DNA of 64,000 nt from Mucilaginibacter terrigena (lineage in GTDB: Bacteria > Bacteroidota > Bacteroidia > Sphingobacteriales > Sphingobacteriaceae): the NCBI RefSeq assembly GCF_004168255.1, contig NZ_SEWG01000005.1, forward strand, positions 248,001 through 312,000, written 5' to 3'. The notes beneath the pieces are model-generated. The model was given only the letters and a program-made list of their open reading frames with translations, had not been told where the DNA came from and searched no databases. Shown piece by piece: positions 43,163-50,126 of this stretch; the stretch's first letter is position 1, and every line of letters begins with the position of its first letter. Made by a program: the position numbers and the translations under genes.

Positions 43163-43948
43163 TTACAAACCCGAATAATAATCATATCCCTTTTCGGCCC
43201 AGTAATCGGGCGGGCGTTGGTTGCTGAAAGCCATGCTGCCAATGCGTTTTAAGTTTTTGATGCCATATTTTACCGGGATGATGAGCCGCAGCGGTTCGCC
43301 ATGTTTTGGGATAAGCGGCTTATCGTTCATCTCGTAGGCCAACAGCGTTTGCGGGTGCATAGCGCTGGGCATATCAATACCTACATAGTATTTTTTATCG
43401 GGCGTAGCCAGGCCAACATAATCAAGTTTAGCCTGGTCGGTAAGGTTAAAGTGCGTTATAAAATCGCTGAACTTTACGCCGCCCCAGTGCGAGATCTGGT
43501 TCCAGCCTTCCACACATTTAAAATCGAAGATCAGCTCTGTTTTGGGCAGGGCTTTGATCTGGTCCAGCGTGATGTTGAGTACTTCGCCCGATTGCTTTTT
43601 TACCTGTAATTGCCAGTCTTCTACGTCGATCATCGACTTTAGGCCTATGCCGCTGTTGTAACGTACCACTTTTGCGGCGCGTTCTTTAGGATAGGTTTTA
43701 ACCAGGTGGTTATTACTGAAAAAATTACGGAAGAAAAGCTCGGTTTTGTTTAGCGCACGGCGCAATGGCGCTTTGGCGCCGGCAGTAGCCGTACGGATCT
43801 CTTTCGGCGAGTTTTTAAGCCAACTCCAGCCGCCATATGCCACACCCGAGAGCACCGTGAACGTACCAAACGAGATGAACGTGCGCCGGTTTATTTGCTG
43901 CTCGATGGTGAGGGGTTTTTTAACCTTTTTTAGCTTGCTATTTTTCAT
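43163..43948 (-). CDS. MsrP/YedY-like molybdopterin-dependent oxidoreductase
   Basis: Start placed at ATG 43948, giving 261 residues and an 11-base overlap with the cytochrome gene. A twin-arginine segment (INRRTFISFG) precedes a hydrophobic stretch, so Tat export to the periplasm is likely. The SUOX-fold domain shows the molybdenum-ligand Cys145 in FDFKCVEGWNQISHWGG, then DYVGLATPDKKYYVGIDMPSAMHPQTLLAYEMN and PKHGEPLRLIIPVKYGIKNLKRI. E. coli MsrP reduces methionine sulfoxide in periplasmic proteins. Here it is the last gene of DUF1223 - cytochrome b - MsrP-like, whose promoter matches two others of the adjacent ECF sigma factor. Methionine sulfoxide as substrate is inferred. Confidence 0.87.
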   Translation of the reverse strand: MKNSKLKKVKKPLTIEQQINRRTFISFGTFTVLSGVAYGGWSWLKNSPKEIRTATAGAKAPLRRALNKTELFFRNFFSNNHLVKTYPKERAAKVVRYNSGIGLKSMIDVEDWQLQVKKQSGEVLNITLDQIKALPKTELIFDFKCVEGWNQISHWGGVKFSDFITHFNLTDQAKLDYVGLATPDKKYYVGIDMPSAMHPQTLLAYEMNDKPLIPKHGEPLRLIIPVKYGIKNLKRIGSMAFSNQRPPDYWAEKGYDYYSGL

Positions 43949-44636
43949 CAGCGGCAGGTTTAATAACAGGTTTTGGATTATCATTTACTACCTCGAAGCC
44001 GGTGATGACAGACTGGAAATTTCGCCACCCGGCAATTACTACCTGCACAACATGAATAATAAAGAAAAATACGTAGCCAATGGTGAGTACAAAATGTTCG
44101 ATACGTGCCGCGTGGTAACCGCCGCAAAGCCAGGTAATGGTATTAAACTGCACGGGCTTGTAAATAGCCAGCCCGGTGATAACCGAGCCGATACCCATAA
44201 TAATGATAGCCGTATAAGCGATGCGTTGCGCGGCATTATATTTTTTTTGCGGCGGAGCAATTTTGCGGATATGCAGATCGTGCAGCAGCACTTGCCAGGC
44301 CTCTTTAAATGAATTGCGTTTGGGCACCAGTTCGCGCCACTCTCCCGAGAAAATGGTGTACAGGATATACACTATTCCGTTAATGGTAAAGAACCACATA
44401 AACAAAAAGTGGAAGGCCATACCCTCGGCCAGGCGGCCGGGGATGTTAAAGGCATCATTAAACCATTTGGGGAAAAACCTGAAAAACGTATGCCCGAACA
44501 AGCCAAACGTGTAGGTATCATTGGCCCAGTAGATAAGCATCCCGCTCCATATCATAATGGTTAGAATGGGGAAGTTTACCCAATGTGTCCACCGCATGGC
44601 TAAGGAATGTTTCTGTTTAATGGTTTTCATGGGCAT
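43938..44636 (-). CDS. Cytochrome b (b561/Ni-Fe-hydrogenase-type) membrane subunit
   Basis: A 232-residue membrane protein with four helices and several candidate haem ligands: HSLAMRWTHWVNFPIL, GMAFHFLFMWFF, and RIEHFVLTIGYVFFFIIHVVQVV. It is of the thiosulfate-reductase/hydrogenase cytochrome b kind rather than true MsrQ, but it can play the same role: passing quinol electrons to the periplasmic molybdoenzyme encoded next (overlap 11 bases). The ATG overlaps the DUF1223 stop codon (TAATG), so translation is coupled. Confidence 0.88.
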   Translation of the reverse strand: MPMKTIKQKHSLAMRWTHWVNFPILTIMIWSGMLIYWANDTYTFGLFGHTFFRFFPKWFNDAFNIPGRLAEGMAFHFLFMWFFTINGIVYILYTIFSGEWRELVPKRNSFKEAWQVLLHDLHIRKIAPPQKKYNAAQRIAYTAIIIMGIGSVITGLAIYKPVQFNTITWLCGGYHAARIEHFVLTIGYVFFFIIHVVQVVIAGWRNFQSVITGFEVVNDNPKPVIKPAADEK

Positions 44637-45433
44637 TAATTACTTGCCGTGACAGTTGCGGTGAATGCGGCGCGTGTAGCGCCCGTAATTTCGCCGGTTG
44701 CATTGTTTTGTACAAATGCTATCAGCTCAAAGCCTGCTGCTGTAAAATTTCCGGGCAATTTGATATTGGTTTCGCCTTGTTTATGTTCACCTAACGGGAT
44801 GCCTTTAAGCTCATTCACGATCTGGATGTGCGACAGGGTGCGGCCGTTGTTCTCGCCGCTCTTTATATGGCTTACCGCATTTTTTTGAACAAGCGCCAAT
44901 TGCAGCGTAGTGTTGTCGGCAGCATTGGCGGCATTGTATTTTAAAACGGCGTTATGGCCGCTTACATTAACGTTGGTTAACGATACCGGGGTAACAGTTC
45001 CCTTGCCAAGGCCTGTGCGGATGGCATTATACAAAGACCCCTGTTCCGAGCCAACAAACTCGGTTTTGCCGTTTACAATGGCCTGCGGCGTATAAACGCC
45101 CTTAAGCTTTAACCAAACGGAATAAGCGCTTTGCCTGTGGCTAAATTCGGCTTTGCTGAATACATCTTTCCAGCCAAGGCGGTTCCAGTAATCAACGTGG
45201 TACGCTAAAATATAAACCGGTTTGCCGGCGCTTTCCTTTTGAATTTTGGCGATAAGCCCGTCGGCAGGGGGGCAGCTGGAGCAGCCTTCGGAGGTGAACA
45301 GTTCTACCACGGCAAAACCATCGCCGTTGGTAACAATTACCGGCTTTACCGTGCTTTTATTGATGAATGCTGCCGATGCCAATGCCATAACGGCAACTGC
45401 AAAGACAACGAATAGTATTTTTATATTTTTCAT
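44636..45433 (-). CDS. DUF1223-family secreted thioredoxin-fold protein
   Basis: A 265-residue exported protein (hydrophobic N-terminus ILFVVFAVAVMALASAAF). The DUF1223 marks AVVELFTSEGCSSCPPADGLI (Cys51 and Cys54 as CxxC), HVDYWNRLGWKDVFS, FSHRQSAYS and TPQAIVNGK are complete. Family members are predicted periplasmic thiol proteins of unknown reaction. First gene of the operon with cytochrome b and the MsrP-like enzyme. Its promoter (45459-45485) has the same elements as those of the sigma factor and the Met-rich peptide. Confidence 0.9.
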   Translation of the reverse strand: MKNIKILFVVFAVAVMALASAAFINKSTVKPVIVTNGDGFAVVELFTSEGCSSCPPADGLIAKIQKESAGKPVYILAYHVDYWNRLGWKDVFSKAEFSHRQSAYSVWLKLKGVYTPQAIVNGKTEFVGSEQGSLYNAIRTGLGKGTVTPVSLTNVNVSGHNAVLKYNAANAADNTTLQLALVQKNAVSHIKSGENNGRTLSHIQIVNELKGIPLGEHKQGETNIKLPGNFTAAGFELIAFVQNNATGEITGATRAAFTATVTASN

Positions 45434-45458
45434 GATGATGCTTGTTTTCGGGATATCA

Positions 45459-45485
45459 GTCGGCGGTGCGATAAAATCCTTACAA
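45459..45485 (-). promoter_or_regulatory. ECF-type promoter A (DUF1223-cytb-MsrP operon)
   Basis: On the minus strand TTGTAAGG (45485-45478), exactly 15 bases, then CGAC (45462-45459), followed about 26 bases on by the DUF1223 ATG. The same -35/-10 pair with the same spacer occurs at 45574-45600 and 46487-46513. Confidence 0.75.
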
Positions 45486-45573
45486 GAAAATATACATTTA
45501 AAACGGGTTGTTTTAAATATACGTAAATAGGCATATTGAGGATTAAGTTTTTTTAGAGGATATTAAAAACAAG

Positions 45574-45600
45574 TTGTAAGGATTTAAATCCCCAAGCGAC
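45574..45600 (+). promoter_or_regulatory. ECF-type promoter B (sigma/anti-sigma operon)
   Basis: TTGTAAGG (45574-45581), 15 bases, CGAC (45597-45600). It ends only four bases before ATG 45605, so transcription would begin within that codon region; the next ATG at 45617 is the more likely start of the sigma gene. Implies autoregulation. Confidence 0.75.
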
Positions 45601-45616
45601 TAACATGCGTTTTACT

Positions 45617-46204
45617 ATGGATAATAAAGAAATAATTGCCGAACGAACGCAGCTTAAACCACAAGGGTGGGTTAACGCCCATGCCGATTATTTATACGCT
45701 TACACCATTACACGGGTAAATAATGAAGAGCAAGCCCGCGACCTGGTGCAGGAAACCTTTTTAGCCGCGCTGGAAGGTATGCACAAGTTTGAAGGCAAAA
45801 GCTCGGAACGTACCTGGCTTACGGCTATACTACGGAACAAGATCATCGATACCTATCGCAAAAAAACAAAGGGGCTTAAAACACTAAGCATAAACGATGC
45901 CTACGCGGGCGAAACTGAGTTTTTTTGGAACGAAGAAGGCCACTGGCACCAGGAACATTGGCCCGCGCACTTCGGTATTGACCATATCGACCCATTGGCT
46001 GCAAAGGAGTTTAACCACATATTGCAGAAGTGCATGCAAAAGCTGCCGGCGCTTTGGCTATCGGTATTTACCATGAAGCATATGGATGATGAAACAACCG
46101 ATACAGTTTGCGCCGAGTTAAAAATAACCGCCTCAAACTTTTGGGTAATTATACACCGGGCTAAGTTAAACATGAGGGCCTGCCTTCAAAAAAACTGGAT
46201 GTAA
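45617..46204 (+). CDS. ECF-type RNA polymerase sigma factor
   Basis: The frame is open from ATG 45605, but ATG 45617 (MDNKEIIAERTQL) is chosen because the promoter's -10 box lies at 45597-45600. The 195-residue protein has sigma region 2 (HADYLYAYTITRVNNEEQARDLVQETFLAAL, RTWLTAILRNKIIDTYRKK) and region 4 (LQKCMQKLPALWLSVFTMKHMDDETTDTVCAELKITASNFWVIIHRAKLNMRACL). It is co-transcribed with a zinc-type anti-sigma-like protein. The three TTGTAAGG-N15-CGAC promoters around it are its likely targets. Confidence 0.92.
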   Translation: MDNKEIIAERTQLKPQGWVNAHADYLYAYTITRVNNEEQARDLVQETFLAALEGMHKFEGKSSERTWLTAILRNKIIDTYRKKTKGLKTLSINDAYAGETEFFWNEEGHWHQEHWPAHFGIDHIDPLAAKEFNHILQKCMQKLPALWLSVFTMKHMDDETTDTVCAELKITASNFWVIIHRAKLNMRACLQKNWM

Positions 46205-46205
46205 T

Positions 46206-46481
46206 ATGAACAAGCTTACAAAAATACTTTACAACTGCCGCAAGGCCACCTTTATGATCGAAAAGCGGATGGTGCAGCCATTGAGTTTTCAGGAAAATAT
46301 AGAGCTACGCCTACATTTGGTTACCTGTGGCGTATGCCGCTTGTATATTAAGCAAAGCCATAAAATCGATCTGATGGTAAAACAGATCCTTAAAAGCCCG
46401 CCGCCGGCCAACATCCGCCTTGACGATGATTTTAAAAAGGAATTAAAGCAGCGGATAGAAAAAGAATTGAATAAAAGTTAA
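46206..46481 (+). CDS. Zinc-type anti-sigma-like protein
   Basis: A 91-residue cytoplasmic protein with the HxxxCxxC zinc anti-sigma motif (His37, Cys41, Cys44 in LRLHLVTCGVC) and helical ends. It has no membrane helix, so it resembles soluble, redox-sensitive anti-sigma factors in which cysteine oxidation frees the sigma factor. Its ATG is one base after the sigma stop codon, so the two are tightly coupled. The fit to an oxidant-sensing switch agrees with the other genes of the locus. Confidence 0.85.
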   Translation: MNKLTKILYNCRKATFMIEKRMVQPLSFQENIELRLHLVTCGVCRLYIKQSHKIDLMVKQILKSPPPANIRLDDDFKKELKQRIEKELNKS

Positions 46482-46486
46482 ACCAT

Positions 46487-46513
46487 TTGTAAGGTTTGTT
46501 AATTAGAAGCGAC
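46487..46513 (+). promoter_or_regulatory. ECF-type promoter C (Met-rich peptide gene)
   Basis: TTGTAAGG (46487-46494), 15 bases, CGAC (46510-46513), six bases after the anti-sigma stop. It shares AAG before CGAC with promoter B. Its own promoter lets the peptide be made in excess of the sigma operon. Confidence 0.75.
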
Positions 46514-46542
46514 AAAGCCGGCAAATTAAAAAACTTAAAAAA

Positions 46543-46797
46543 ATGAAAACGTACAACAAATCAGTTTTAAAAGGTGCCCTTATAGCCGGCGCCATCGCGT
46601 TATGCTTTAGCCTTAACCTTAGCGCAGGTGTCACCAAACATTCTTCACCGTCGCTTACTGCCGTTAGCGATACCGGCAAAATGAAAAAGATGGATAAAAT
46701 GAAAAAGAAGGATATGAAGATGAAAAAGAAAAAGATGGAAAAATCGAAAATGGAACCATCAAAAATGGAAGAGGATAAAATGGGCAGTAAAATGTAA
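46543..46797 (+). CDS. Secreted Lys/Met-rich peptide (MXKDX-repeat, MrpX-like)
   Basis: An 84-residue protein with a signal peptide (about 1-28, LCFSLNLSAG). The last 38 residues hold 10 methionines (47, 50, 53, 58, 60, 65, 70, 75, 80, 84), with Lys and Glu/Asp between them and a late five-residue rhythm (SKM EPSKM EEDKM). Such MXKDX-type peptides occur beside ECF sigma factors and YedY genes; Azospira MrpX is a known example that absorbs hypochlorite through methionine oxidation. Here promoter C, the sigma/anti-sigma pair and the divergent MsrP-like operon give the same set of parts. Ends at a terminator (46829-46857). Confidence 0.85.
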   Translation: MKTYNKSVLKGALIAGAIALCFSLNLSAGVTKHSSPSLTAVSDTGKMKKMDKMKKKDMKMKKKKMEKSKMEPSKMEEDKMGSKM

Positions 46798-46828: not shown

Positions 46829-46857
46829 GGGGGTTGTGAATGGCCCCCTCTTTTTTT
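46829..46857 (+). terminator. Terminator of the Met-rich peptide gene
   Basis: Stem GGGGG / CCCCC closed by G-T pairs, then seven T. Confidence 0.8.
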
Positions 46858-46875: not shown

Positions 46876-47454
46876 ATGAAAAAATTTATTGCAGCAGCTA
46901 TAGCGTTGGCGTTTTCGGTACAGCTTATGGCGCAAACAGGGTTAAAAAAGGGCGATACAGCCCCGGTATTTGTAGCTAAGGATAATTCGGGTAAAACGAT
47001 TGACCTGAAAGCCGTGCTTAGATCGGGCAAATCGGTGGTGCTGTTTTTCTACCGCGGCCAATGGTGCCCATATTGCAACAGGCAAATGCAGCATATCCAG
47101 GATTCGTTACAACTACTGACCGGTAAAAACGCCTATGTAGTTGGTGTAACGCCCGAAGCTGTTGAAAATATTGATAAAACCATCGCTAAAACAAAAGCCA
47201 CCTATTCTATTGTACAGGATAAGAGCTACAGTATTATGAAAAGTTATGGCGTAAACTATGTTATGGACGCGGCTACCGTTATCAAGTACAAAGGGTATGG
47301 GCTTGATATGGCCAAGGCAAACGGCAATACCGACAATGTATTACCCGTACCGGCAACTTATGTAATAAACAGCGACGGCAAAATTGCATTTGTGCATTTT
47401 GATAAAGACTATAGCAGGCGCGCGTCGGTAAAAGATATTTTGGCGGTGCTTTAA
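46876..47454 (+). CDS. Secreted AhpC/TSA-type peroxiredoxin-like protein
   Basis: A 192-residue exported protein (signal 1-20, QLMAQ) with a thioredoxin-fold redoxin domain. The catalytic region is FFYRGQWCPYCNRQM with Cys64 and Cys67, followed by the redoxin strings YVVGVTPEAVENIDKTIAK and VPATYVINSDGKIAFVHFDKDYSRR. Likely reduces peroxides or works as a disulfide reductase in the periplasm. It lies just after the Met-rich gene but behind a terminator, and no TTGTAAGG promoter precedes it. Its product fits the oxidative-stress theme. Confidence 0.87.
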   Translation: MKKFIAAAIALAFSVQLMAQTGLKKGDTAPVFVAKDNSGKTIDLKAVLRSGKSVVLFFYRGQWCPYCNRQMQHIQDSLQLLTGKNAYVVGVTPEAVENIDKTIAKTKATYSIVQDKSYSIMKSYGVNYVMDAATVIKYKGYGLDMAKANGNTDNVLPVPATYVINSDGKIAFVHFDKDYSRRASVKDILAVL

Positions 47455-47521: not shown

Positions 47522-48031
47522 ATGAAAAAAATATTACTTCTTCTTTTACTATGCTCCGGTGCGGCCATGGCGCAGGAAAAAAACCAGCAAACCCAAAAAT
47601 TTGCCATCACCGGCGAGGTGGAAAAGGAATCGGTCATTACCCTCGACTCGCTGAAGCAATATACCATAAGCCCTATCGGCGATATCAAAGTGACCGACCA
47701 TACCGGCGCATTCAAGCACAAGGATGATGAACTGAAGGGCGTTTTGCTTAAAGATGTATTATCGCATACCAAATTTAAAACCACCAGCCCCAAATTACTG
47801 AGCCGTTTTTACTTTGTTTGCACCGGGGTAGATGGCTATAAAGTGGTGTATTCGTGGAATGAATTGTATAACACCGCCGTGGGCGACCATGTGTACATCA
47901 TTATGGAAAAGAACGGCATCAAGGCCGATAAAATGCCCGAAAGTATCCAAATGACATCCGCTACTGATTTTAAAACCGGCCGCAGGTATTTGCATAATCT
48001 GGATAAAATAGTGGTAGGGCAGGTGCAGTAA
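47522..48031 (+). CDS. Small secreted SUOX-fold (molybdopterin-binding-like) protein
   Basis: A 169-residue exported protein (signal 1-17, GAAMAQ). The domain (FAITGEVEKESVITLDSLKQYT, LKGVLLKDVLSH, FVCTGVDGYKVVYSWNELYN and the end DKIVVGQVQ) is that of short stand-alone oxidoreductase molybdopterin-binding proteins. The Cys in FVCTGVDGY is not in the usual CVEGW context, so catalysis is doubtful and cofactor binding may be lost. It faces modABC across a strong hairpin (48042-48070), which supports a molybdenum link. Confidence 0.75.
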   Translation: MKKILLLLLLCSGAAMAQEKNQQTQKFAITGEVEKESVITLDSLKQYTISPIGDIKVTDHTGAFKHKDDELKGVLLKDVLSHTKFKTTSPKLLSRFYFVCTGVDGYKVVYSWNELYNTAVGDHVYIIMEKNGIKADKMPESIQMTSATDFKTGRRYLHNLDKIVVGQVQ

Positions 48032-48075: not shown

Positions 48076-48693
48076 TCACCCTATTTCCAACTCATCCCCT
48101 GTAACCCCATCCAATTCCTGCGGGTTGTGGCTTACAATTAGCGTTGTTGCGCCAAGTTCGGTAAATATTATTTGCAGGTCTTTTATCAGTGCCGATTTCA
48201 TTTTGAGATCAAGCGCCGAAAAGGGCTCGTCCATCAGGATCAATTTTGGTTTAATGGCCAATGCCCGCAATATGGCCAGCCGCTGTTGCTGCCCTCCGGA
48301 TAGATGGTTGGGTTTGTGACCGGTAAAGTTATCCAGTCCGCCTGTTTTCAAAAGCCGGGTTATCCATTCTGCATCATTGGTAGCGTATTCCAGGTGTTGT
48401 TTCACCGTCATGTTGGGGAACAGGGCATAATCCTGAAAAACAAAGCCAACCCTGCGCTGCTGTGGACTTAGGTCGATATTTTGTGCGGCCTCAAACCAAC
48501 TAATACTGTTTGCTTTTATGCTGCCGCTATCCGGCGTAATTAAACCCGCAATCATTTTCAACAGGGTTGTTTTACCCGCGCCGGATGGGCCCGTAATGCG
48601 GGTGATACTGCCGGGGACAAATACCTTTTTTATCCGTAGCATTTGCAGCCCGTTATGCGCCTTTAGCTTTTTTTCAATGTCAACTGCTATCAT
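48076..48693 (-). CDS. modC: Molybdate ABC transporter ATPase (short form)
   Basis: A 205-residue ABC ATPase: Walker A GPSGAGKTT, Q-loop FVFQDYALFPNMTV, signature LSGGQQQR, Walker B LILMDEPFSALD, H-loop IVSHN. It powers molybdate uptake. Typical ModC is about 350 residues with a C-terminal Mop/TOBE domain; this one ends straight after the ATPase core, so that sensing domain is absent. Its ATG overlaps the modB stop by 4 bases. Confidence 0.9.
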   Translation of the reverse strand: MIAVDIEKKLKAHNGLQMLRIKKVFVPGSITRITGPSGAGKTTLLKMIAGLITPDSGSIKANSISWFEAAQNIDLSPQQRRVGFVFQDYALFPNMTVKQHLEYATNDAEWITRLLKTGGLDNFTGHKPNHLSGGQQQRLAILRALAIKPKLILMDEPFSALDLKMKSALIKDLQIIFTELGATTLIVSHNPQELDGVTGDELEIG

Positions 48694-49361
48694 TCTAACG
48701 GACTTTTAGCCTGGTACTTGTTATAAATAAACACGCTTAATACCATCACAAAGGTAATGGCGAAAAGCACAAGCGAATAATTATTGGCGGCAGTGTAATT
48801 CATTTGTTCAACAGCATCGTAAACGGCTATGGATGCCACGCGGGTAACGCCGGGGATATTGCCGCCTATCATCAGCACCACGCCAAACTCGCCCAGGGTA
48901 TGTGCAAAGGTGAGCACCGCGGCAGTGAGCAGCGAAGGTTTGATGTTGGGCAGCAGCACATGCCAAAGGGTTTGCCACCGCGTTTTACCAAGCGTATACG
49001 ATGCCTGCGAAAGCGATGCCGGCAGTTGCTGAAAGGCTGATTTTACCGGACTTATCATAAAGGGCATGCTGTAAATAACTGATGCCAGCACCAAACCCGG
49101 AAACGAGAATACAAATTGCACATTAAACGTTTGCTGCAACCAATGCCCCAACCCCCGCTGCGGACTAAACGCCAGCAGCAAATAAAACCCCAGCACCGAT
49201 GGCGGCAATACCAAAGGCATGGTTATAATGGCCTCGATAATGATCTTCGCTAACGACCGCTTTTTTGAAAGCCACCAGGCCAAAGGCAAGGCAACCAACA
49301 GTAGTATCAGGGTGGTTACAGCTGCTAATTTAAGGGTAAGCCAAATGGGTTGCAGGTCCAT
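48690..49361 (-). CDS. modB: Molybdate ABC transporter permease
   Basis: A 223-residue inner-membrane permease with five to six helices. ModB marks: MPLVLPPSVLGFYLLLAFSP, SMPFMISPVKSAFQQLPASLSQASYTLGKTRWQTLWHVLLP (the EAA loop that contacts ModC) and AHTLGEFGVVLMIGGNIPGVTRVASIAVYD. Complete in length. Three bases after modA. Confidence 0.94.
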   Translation of the reverse strand: MDLQPIWLTLKLAAVTTLILLLVALPLAWWLSKKRSLAKIIIEAIITMPLVLPPSVLGFYLLLAFSPQRGLGHWLQQTFNVQFVFSFPGLVLASVIYSMPFMISPVKSAFQQLPASLSQASYTLGKTRWQTLWHVLLPNIKPSLLTAAVLTFAHTLGEFGVVLMIGGNIPGVTRVASIAVYDAVEQMNYTAANNYSLVLFAITFVMVLSVFIYNKYQAKSPLE

Positions 49362-49364
49362 ACG

Positions 49365-50126
49365 TTATAGGGTGTGGTAGCCGTAGGCTTTAAAAATGTT
49401 TTTTGCCCGCGGGCTTAATATGTATTGATAAAATTTTTCGGCCGCGGCATTTTTAGCTGAGTGCTTTAATAATACCATGGCCTGTTCTATCGGCGCGTAA
49501 TTTTTAGGGTTTATGAGGCTGTAAAATAGCTTTTGCTTGTTGGCCTGGTCTTTTACCAGCGACAGTGTGGTAAACCCGGCCTGCACAACGCCGGTAATTA
49601 TATAAGTGTTTACCTGGCTGATGCTTTCTCCAAATACAATTTTGGTTTGTACTTTATCATAAATGCCTGCTTTTATAATGGCTTGCTGCGCGGCCTTACC
49701 GTAAGGGGCAATCGCGGGGTTACCAATGGCTATTTTTTTAACATTATCTGTCAGTAATAGCCCGTTCCAGTTTGCAAGGCTTAGGTTATGTGTGCTGCAA
49801 ATAATAAGCACCCCCTGTGCGTAAACAACCGGATCTTTTATAGTAAGGCCATCCCGCTGTAAGGTTTGCGGGAAATCCCTGTCGGCAGATAAAAACACAT
49901 CATAAGGCGCACCGTTACGGATCTGCGCTGCCAGGTTTCCCGATGAGCCGGAGATCACATCAATGTTTATCCCGGTATTCAACTTAAAATCTTTTTTTAG
50001 TGCTTTCATTACCGGCTGCAGGTTTGCGGCAATGGCAACCTTCAAAGTTTGTGCCTGCACACCGGCAGTAAAAAACCACAATGCGATAAAAAAAAGCGAA
50101 AACGTTTTAGTGAATAGTTTTACCAT
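49365..50126 (-). CDS. modA: Molybdate-binding protein
   Basis: A 253-residue periplasmic binding protein with signal peptide (about 1-25, AGVQAQ). ModA marks: VAIAANLQPVMKALKKDF, INIDVISGSSGNLAAQIRNGAPYDVFLSADRDFPQTL, and IGNPAIAPYGKAAQQAI. It delivers molybdate to ModBC. First gene of modABC and divergent from a GH5 gene. The operon lies next to molybdoenzyme genes, which probably explains its place. Confidence 0.94.
   Translation of the reverse strand: MVKLFTKTFSLFFIALWFFTAGVQAQTLKVAIAANLQPVMKALKKDFKLNTGINIDVISGSSGNLAAQIRNGAPYDVFLSADRDFPQTLQRDGLTIKDPVVYAQGVLIICSTHNLSLANWNGLLLTDNVKKIAIGNPAIAPYGKAAQQAIIKAGIYDKVQTKIVFGESISQVNTYIITGVVQAGFTTLSLVKDQANKQKLFYSLINPKNYAPIEQAMVLLKHSAKNAAAEKFYQYILSPRAKNIFKAYGYHTL

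What the first reader, a model, noticed from the sequence alone, without database searches (positions are those of the whole stretch)
43163..46797. Bacteroidota version of a methionine-peptide / MsrP oxidant-scavenging system
The locus joins an ECF sigma factor, a soluble zinc anti-sigma-like protein, a secreted peptide with 10 Met in 38 residues, a Tat-type MsrP/YedY-like molybdoenzyme, a cytochrome b and a DUF1223 thiol protein. In Azospira, a SigF-controlled Met-rich peptide (MrpX) and a YedY-type reductase are known to scavenge hypochlorite by cycles of methionine oxidation and repair. The same parts, with a different cytochrome (b561-like, not MsrQ) and an added DUF1223 protein, are seen here under a shared promoter type. 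This would be a largely undescribed variant.
Basis: partly seen in the sequence, partly recalled or inferred. Interest (0 to 1): 0.9.

Follow-up and report, generated by a model that had tools for sequence, protein, structure and literature searches.

The report
Bacteroidota methionine-oxidation defence regulon
This soil-bacterium gene cluster looks like a regulated antioxidant kit that secretes a methionine-rich sponge peptide and repair enzymes to soak up bleach-like oxidants outside the cytoplasm, with the effector parts of one known system under the type of switch known from another.

Summary
At 43163-46797 of a Mucilaginibacter-like genome lie a YedY/MsrP-like molybdoenzyme, a b561-type cytochrome, a DUF1223 protein, and divergently an ECF sigma factor, a zinc anti-sigma factor and a secreted Met/Lys-rich peptide. 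The three operons share an exact promoter, TTGTAAGG-N15-CGAC. Across 121 congeners the promoter averages 4.25 copies per genome where this sigma factor is present and 0.37 where it is absent (chance control 0.77 and 0.57). In other genomes the same promoter precedes secreted MsrA, MsrB, more Met-rich MxKDx peptides and an RclC-like protein. This supports a periplasmic methionine-oxidation regulon. The Azospira/Brucella comparison holds for the effectors only. The control module resembles Neisseria sigmaE/MseR and Haemophilus RpoE2/HrsE: identical zinc-ligand spacing, near-identical promoter, shared msrAB targets. Membership in MrpX-MsrPQ-SigF/NrsF fails on MsrQ, the MsrP cut-off and the anti-sigma type. 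Best reading: the anti-sigma factor senses an oxidant, the sigma factor is released, and a Met-rich sacrificial peptide is recycled by a quinol-fed MetO reductase. The inducer and the enzyme activity are untested. New variant of a known kind.

The parts
43163..43948 (-). YedY/MsrP-like molybdoenzyme (group 1B-like, 261 aa), Tat-type N-terminus, Mo-ligand Cys145 in a CVEGW motif
   Evidence: PF00174 E 9e-30; best solved structure E. coli YedY 1xdq by sequence and by predicted fold; Cys145 invariant in 41 homologues
43938..44636 (-). Di-heme b561-type cytochrome b, likely quinol-to-enzyme electron donor (not MsrQ)
   Evidence: PF01292 E 9e-19; His18, His76, His181 and His195 conserved in all 39 sequences; no PF01794/MsrQ in the genome
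44636..45433 (-). DUF1223 secreted thioredoxin-fold protein with C51xxC54
   Evidence: PF06764 E 2e-55; structure homologue 2axo E 2e-27; C51 and C54 in 39/39
45459..45485 (-). Promoter TTGTAAGG-N15-CGAC for the DUF1223-cytb-MsrP-like operon
   Evidence: exact match; conserved upstream of DUF1223 in relatives
45574..45600 (+). Promoter TTGTAAGG-N15-CGACTAA for sigma/anti-sigma (autoregulation)
   Evidence: exact match
45605..46204 (+). ECF sigma factor (TIGR02943-like; likely start 45617)
   Evidence: PF04542, TIGR02943 149.7 bits vs cut-off 162.2; presence predicts the motif across 121 genomes
46206..46481 (+). Soluble zinc anti-sigma factor (ZAS: C11, H37-x3-C41-x2-C44)
   Evidence: NF052368 E 3e-12; all four ligands in 35/35 sequences; same spacing as RsrA and MseR (PMC2893595)
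46487..46513 (+). Promoter TTGTAAGG-N15-CGAC for the Met-rich peptide
   Evidence: exact match
46543..46797 (+). Secreted Met/Lys-rich peptide (84 aa precursor, 10 Met in the last 38 residues)
   Evidence: orthologues and 37 distinct motif-linked peptides, several with MSKDK-type pentads
46829..46848 (+). Intrinsic-terminator-like hairpin after the peptide gene
   Evidence: scan hit; overall fold z -1.08, so weak support
46876..47454 (+). Secreted AhpC/TSA-type redoxin, conserved neighbour; in some relatives it follows the motif directly
   Evidence: PF00578 E 2e-27; neighbour in many loci; 24 bp after its own motif in L201

Best explanation
This is an oxidant-inducible envelope methionine-redox regulon. 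Step 1: an oxidant, most likely a reactive chlorine species or another strong Met/Cys oxidant, oxidises the Zn-Cys cluster of the cytoplasmic anti-sigma factor, which lets go of the ECF sigma factor (inferred from the ZAS family). Step 2: the sigma factor binds TTGTAAGGwTT-N12-CGAC(T/A)AA and switches on its own operon, the peptide gene and the DUF1223-cytochrome-YedY-like operon (promoter shown by conservation and by co-occurrence with the sigma factor, not by experiment). Step 3: the secreted Met/Lys-rich, Cys- and aromatic-poor peptide acts as a sacrificial methionine sink in the envelope (inferred). Step 4: the Tat-exported molybdoenzyme, fed with electrons from quinol through the di-heme cytochrome b, reduces methionine sulfoxide back to methionine, so that the peptide and envelope proteins are recycled (inferred). 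In other species MsrA and MsrB join the same regulon (promoters shown; enzyme activity inferred). DUF1223 may handle thiol oxidation in the same compartment (weakest step).
For: (a) Exact shared promoter on all three operons, four hits genome-wide versus 0 control. (b) Gene order and motif conserved in more than 30 Mucilaginibacter loci and in other genera of the family. (c) Motif count 4.25 per genome with sigma and 0.37 without (n = 91 and 30, p 6e-15; reversed-pattern control 0.77 and 0.57); 22 genomes keep the enzyme but lack sigma, and 17 of these have no exact motif. (d) Of 110 distinct exact sites sampled, 90 precede a gene of a recurring regulon family; 19 precede MsrA or MsrB (TIGR00401 and TIGR00357 above cut-off) and 4 an RclC-like DUF417 protein (NF040476 E 3e-26 and 6e-19, below cut-off). 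(e) In another family one cluster holds MsrB, cytochrome, MsrP-like enzyme, sigma and anti-sigma, with TGTAAGG-N15-CGTC before msrB. (f) Peptides keep about 18% Met and 30% Lys, with 7 aromatic/Cys residues in 2354. (g) The enzyme is closest to YedY by sequence and fold, CVEGW versus CVEAW. (h) Literature precedents: Brucella BcrXQP (PMC8315932), Neisseria sigmaE/MseR (PMC2893595), Haemophilus RpoE2/HrsE (PMC7907618).
Against: No expression, redox or enzyme data exist. NCBIfam MsrP equivalog cut-off not reached (86.5 of 207 bits). In the window's own genome the msrA-msrB operon and two further msrB genes lack the exact motif. Some relatives have the locus without a recognisable peptide. Neisseria MseR did not respond to H2O2, diamide or singlet oxygen (PMC2893595). 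The co-occurrence test is not corrected for phylogeny.
Confidence: 0.78

Rival explanations
1. The Met-rich peptide is mainly a copper(I)-binding buffer (MxxM/MxM motifs), and the regulon answers copper or copper-plus-oxidant stress, with Msr enzymes as secondary repair.
For: Met-rich stretches can bind Cu(I) (general knowledge); a DoxX protein after the motif matches an HvfX Cu-RiPP-associated family just below cut-off; an E. coli study links MsrPQ with copper stress and CusF (PMC9302797, title and abstract).
Against: No copper efflux, chaperone or sensor gene was seen among the assigned motif targets; peptides almost lack Cys and have few His (45 in 2354); Msr enzymes are the commonest unlinked targets.
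Confidence: 0.1
2. The molybdoenzyme has another substrate (sulfite, an N-oxide, nitrosative species) and is only co-regulated with the Met defence genes.
For: It belongs to the broad PF00174 fold with sulfite oxidases; the Campylobacter group 1A enzyme Cj0379 was linked to nitrosative stress (PMC7759655); identity to YedY is low.
Against: Closest to YedY in sequence and profile searches (205.7 bits versus at most 103 for sulfite dehydrogenases); CVEGW motif; clustered with MsrB in another family.
Confidence: 0.15
3. A general thiol-stress (SigR/RsrA-like) response in which Met chemistry is incidental.
For: ZAS ligand spacing is identical to RsrA (PMC2893595); redoxin, thioredoxin-like and DUF1223 proteins occur in or beside the regulon.
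Against: The commonest assigned non-core targets are MsrA and MsrB, and the peptides conserve Met, not Cys; most targets appear secreted.
Confidence: 0.12

Closest known systems
Azospira SigF/NrsF-MrpX-YedYZ and Brucella BcrS/AbcS-BcrXQP (hypochlorite scavenging)
   Same: ECF sigma controls a secreted Met-rich MxKDx-type peptide plus a YedY/MsrP-type molybdoenzyme and a membrane cytochrome
   Different: Soluble ZAS anti-sigma instead of six-TM DUF1109/NrsF; promoter TTGTAAGG-N15-CGAC versus the TGTAACC...CGAA type of BcrS; PF01292 cytochrome instead of MsrQ; enzyme below the MsrP equivalog cut-off; DUF1223 added; divergent three-unit layout
Neisseria sigmaE/MseR and Haemophilus RpoE2/HrsE (msrAB regulons)
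   Same: Small ZAS anti-sigma with the RsrA-type Cys/His spacing; promoter GTMAGBWTT-N12/13-CGTCTAAH nearly identical to GTAAGGwTT-N12-CGACTAA; msrA/msrB and DoxX targets (in relatives); autoregulation
   Different: No Met-rich peptide or YedY-type enzyme reported in those regulons in the papers read; there MsrAB (and MtsZ in Haemophilus) do the repair
YedY-like group 1B sulfite-oxidase-family enzymes (Kappler)
   Same: About 30 kDa Mo domain with a cytochrome different from that of group 1A
   Different: Assignment rests on size, motif and partner; the classification tree was not rebuilt here
E. coli MsrPQ
   Same: Same fold, Tat-type export, CVE motif, quinol electron supply proposed
   Different: Different cytochrome family, low identity, ECF rather than two-component control

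Membership tests
MrpX-MsrPQ/SigF-NrsF hypochlorite system | secreted Met-rich MxKDx repeat peptide | tested here: inconclusive
   Window peptide is secreted and Met-rich but does not match TIGR02953; some motif-linked orthologues do (E 1e-8 to 2e-3), none over the 41-bit cut-off; several show clear MSKDK pentads
MrpX-MsrPQ/SigF-NrsF hypochlorite system | MsrP equivalog | tested here: not met
   NF003767 86.5 bits against cut-off 207, although YedY is the nearest solved structure
MrpX-MsrPQ/SigF-NrsF hypochlorite system | MsrQ (ferric-reductase-like PF01794) partner | tested here: not met
   Partner is PF01292; no PF01794 in the genome
MrpX-MsrPQ/SigF-NrsF hypochlorite system | six-TM DUF1109/NrsF anti-sigma (ECF16) | tested here: not met
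   91-aa ZAS protein, NF052368-like, ligands invariant
MrpX-MsrPQ/SigF-NrsF hypochlorite system | induction by and protection from HOCl | not testable with these tools
   needs experiment
sigmaE/MseR - RpoE2/HrsE type regulator | ZAS motif C/H-x23-26-H-x3-C-x2-C in a small soluble anti-sigma encoded after sigma | tested here: met
   C11, H37, C41, C44 in 35/35
sigmaE/MseR - RpoE2/HrsE type regulator | promoter GTMAGBWTT - 12/13 nt - CGTCTAAH | tested here: met
   Met apart from CGAC in place of CGTC. 81 sites: GTAAGG and CGAC fixed by the search, then wTT preferred and AA in 76/81; CGTC forms seen
sigmaE/MseR - RpoE2/HrsE type regulator | msrA/msrB as targets | tested here: met
   19 sampled sites in relatives; not in the window's own genome
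sigmaE/MseR - RpoE2/HrsE type regulator | orthology of the sigma factor itself | not tested
   No Neisseria or Haemophilus sequence was fetched
YedY-like group 1B enzyme | about 30 kDa Mo domain, Mo-Cys, cytochrome other than MsrQ | tested here: met
   261 aa, Cys145 invariant, PF01292 neighbour
YedY-like group 1B enzyme | MetO reductase activity | not testable with these tools
   needs enzyme assay

The most novel reading that the evidence does not exclude
A so far undescribed class of catalytic oxidant sink in Bacteroidota: a secreted Met-rich peptide is the dedicated substrate of a group 1B YedY-like MetO reductase that draws electrons from quinol through a b561-type cytochrome, all rewired under a sigmaE/MseR-type switch, so that respiration directly powers removal of chlorine-type oxidants.
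Probability: 0.45. Interest if true: 0.75.

Novelty: new variant of a known kind. Interest (0 to 1): 0.62.

Why it matters
It would extend methionine-peptide scavenging, so far described in Proteobacteria, to a large Bacteroidota group (Mucilaginibacter and related genera). It shows the same effectors under a different control module, gives a likely function to group 1B YedY-like enzymes with b561-type cytochromes, and gives DUF1223 a first regulatory context. It also yields a ready promoter motif for predicting the regulon.

Tried and rejected
The fourth genomic motif match (L002) lies inside birA upstream of DsbD-domain genes; similar birA-internal hits recur in relatives, so it was taken as a conserved coding sequence, not a promoter. 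A one-mismatch motif search in the own genome gave 20 hits against 10 control; too noisy to extend the regulon. The window's own msrA-msrB operon and other msrB genes were checked for the motif: absent. The first structure prediction with 16 close homologues failed (pLDDT 43); a 41-sequence diverse alignment worked (86). L189 first looked like a cytochrome-MsrP fusion; translation shows separate overlapping frames. No paper on this system in Bacteroidota was found in the held library, which lacks most subscription journals.
Full report
Anatomy. The window is contig C5:248001-312000 of a 4.28 Mb genome. Close relatives of the locus are Mucilaginibacter. Two operons diverge from 45434-45604: DUF1223 - cytochrome b - YedY/MsrP-like enzyme on the minus strand, and sigma - anti-sigma on the plus strand, followed by the separately promoted Met-rich peptide. 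A terminator-like hairpin follows the peptide (its fold is not unusual). Next come a secreted redoxin, a small secreted protein with a weak PF00174 match, and modCBA for molybdate uptake, which fits a molybdoenzyme locus.

Promoter. Reading the three intergenic regions gave TTGTAAGG-N15-CGAC in front of each transcription unit. It occurs exactly three times in the window and four times in the genome, with none for the reversed control. The fourth copy is inside birA, and birA-internal copies recur in relatives.

Conservation. In 80 loci found with the DUF1223 protein, more than 30 Mucilaginibacter loci keep the sigma/anti-sigma pair divergent from DUF1223-cytochrome-enzyme, most with the motif in front of the units and many with a Met/Lys-rich secreted peptide after the anti-sigma gene. 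The sigma factor and variants of the locus also occur in other genera of the family.

Sigma and motif go together. In 121 genomes of the genus the exact motif totals 398 against 87 for the control. Genomes with the sigma factor (91) average 4.25 copies, genomes without it (30) 0.37; controls are 0.77 and 0.57 (p 6e-15 by rank test). Twenty-two genomes keep the enzyme without the sigma factor, and 17 of these have no exact motif. This strongly supports the sigma factor as the reader of the motif. Relatedness of the genomes is not corrected for.

What else carries the promoter. From 110 distinct exact sites (chosen from the listed matches, core and unlinked), 90 precede genes of recurring families: sigma 21, peptide 17, DUF1223 15, MsrB 13, MsrA 6, YHS-domain protein 5, RclC-like DUF417 4, spondin-domain 3, thioredoxin-like 2, DoxX 2, redoxin 1, small SUOX-like 1 (using). 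MsrA and MsrB representatives pass the NCBIfam cut-offs; the RclC-like proteins match NF040476 below cut-off. In the 81 best sites the bases after CGAC, which were not selected for, are AA in 76. Because methionine sulfoxide reductases of two unrelated types recur under the promoter, the regulon is about methionine oxidation. In the window's own genome, however, the msrA-msrB operon and other msrB genes have no exact motif, so there the regulon may be only this locus.

The peptide. Thirty-seven distinct motif-linked peptides average 17.8% Met and 30% Lys after the signal region, with 7 Cys/aromatic residues in 2354. They were picked partly by their Met and Lys content, so these averages describe the set and do not test it. 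Some consist of MSKDK-type pentads like the MxKDx family of Brucella BcrX; the window's own copy is a degenerate version and is not matched by TIGR02953. A sacrificial sink is the natural reading, by analogy with MrpX and BcrX (PMC8315932), but it is an inference.

The enzyme and its partner. YedY (E. coli MsrP) is the closest solved structure by single sequence (E 3e-17), by profile (206 bits versus at most 103 for sulfite dehydrogenases) and is the top Foldseek hit of a good model, though sulfite oxidases follow closely. The Mo-ligand cysteine is invariant, within CVEGW against CVEAW in YedY. It is below the MsrP equivalog cut-off. Its partner is a PF01292 cytochrome with conserved histidines, and no MsrQ-type protein is found in the genome. 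This fits the group 1B 'YedY-like' class, about 30 kDa with another cytochrome (PMC7759655).

The switch. The anti-sigma factor keeps Cys11, His37, Cys41 and Cys44 in 35 of 35 sequences, the same positions as RsrA and the same spacing as Neisseria MseR (PMC2893595). The Neisseria sigmaE consensus GTMAGBWTT - 12/13 - CGTCTAAH is almost the motif found here, GTAAGGwTT - 12 - CGACTAA. Neisseria sigmaE and Haemophilus RpoE2 both control msrAB and DoxX-like genes; RpoE2 is tied to hypochlorite (PMC7907618). In a different Bacteroidota family a cluster with MsrB, cytochrome, enzyme, sigma and anti-sigma carries TGTAAGG-N15-CGTC before msrB. So the effectors resemble Azospira/Brucella while the switch resembles Neisseria/Haemophilus.

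Verdict. Shown: anatomy, promoter, co-occurrence, regulon content, residue conservation. Inferred: inducer, sigma release, MetO reduction, sink role, electron path, DUF1223 role.

Noticed in passing
window 48076-50126 (-): modC, modB, modA molybdate transporter genes lie beside the cluster, also in many Mucilaginibacter relatives.
   Followed up: partly
window 47522-48031 (+): Secreted 169-aa protein with a weak PF00174 match and no clear PDB relative by sequence; the enzyme model also matches small PruR pterin-binding proteins, so a PruR-like fold is possible.
   Followed up: partly
L090, L204, L252, L256 and others: A spondin-domain lipoprotein, often near DoxX and RclC-like genes, sits behind the same promoter in relatives.
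   Followed up: partly
L096, L104, L106, L117, L125: A secreted YHS-domain protein (NF041384) follows the motif in several genomes.
   Followed up: partly
L185:5900-6330: In another genus of the family the peptide gene appears split by a frame change at a poly-A run; a sequencing error or a real mutation.
   Followed up: no
L002 and relatives: Exact motif copies inside birA recur in the genus and look like a conserved coding stretch.
   Followed up: yes
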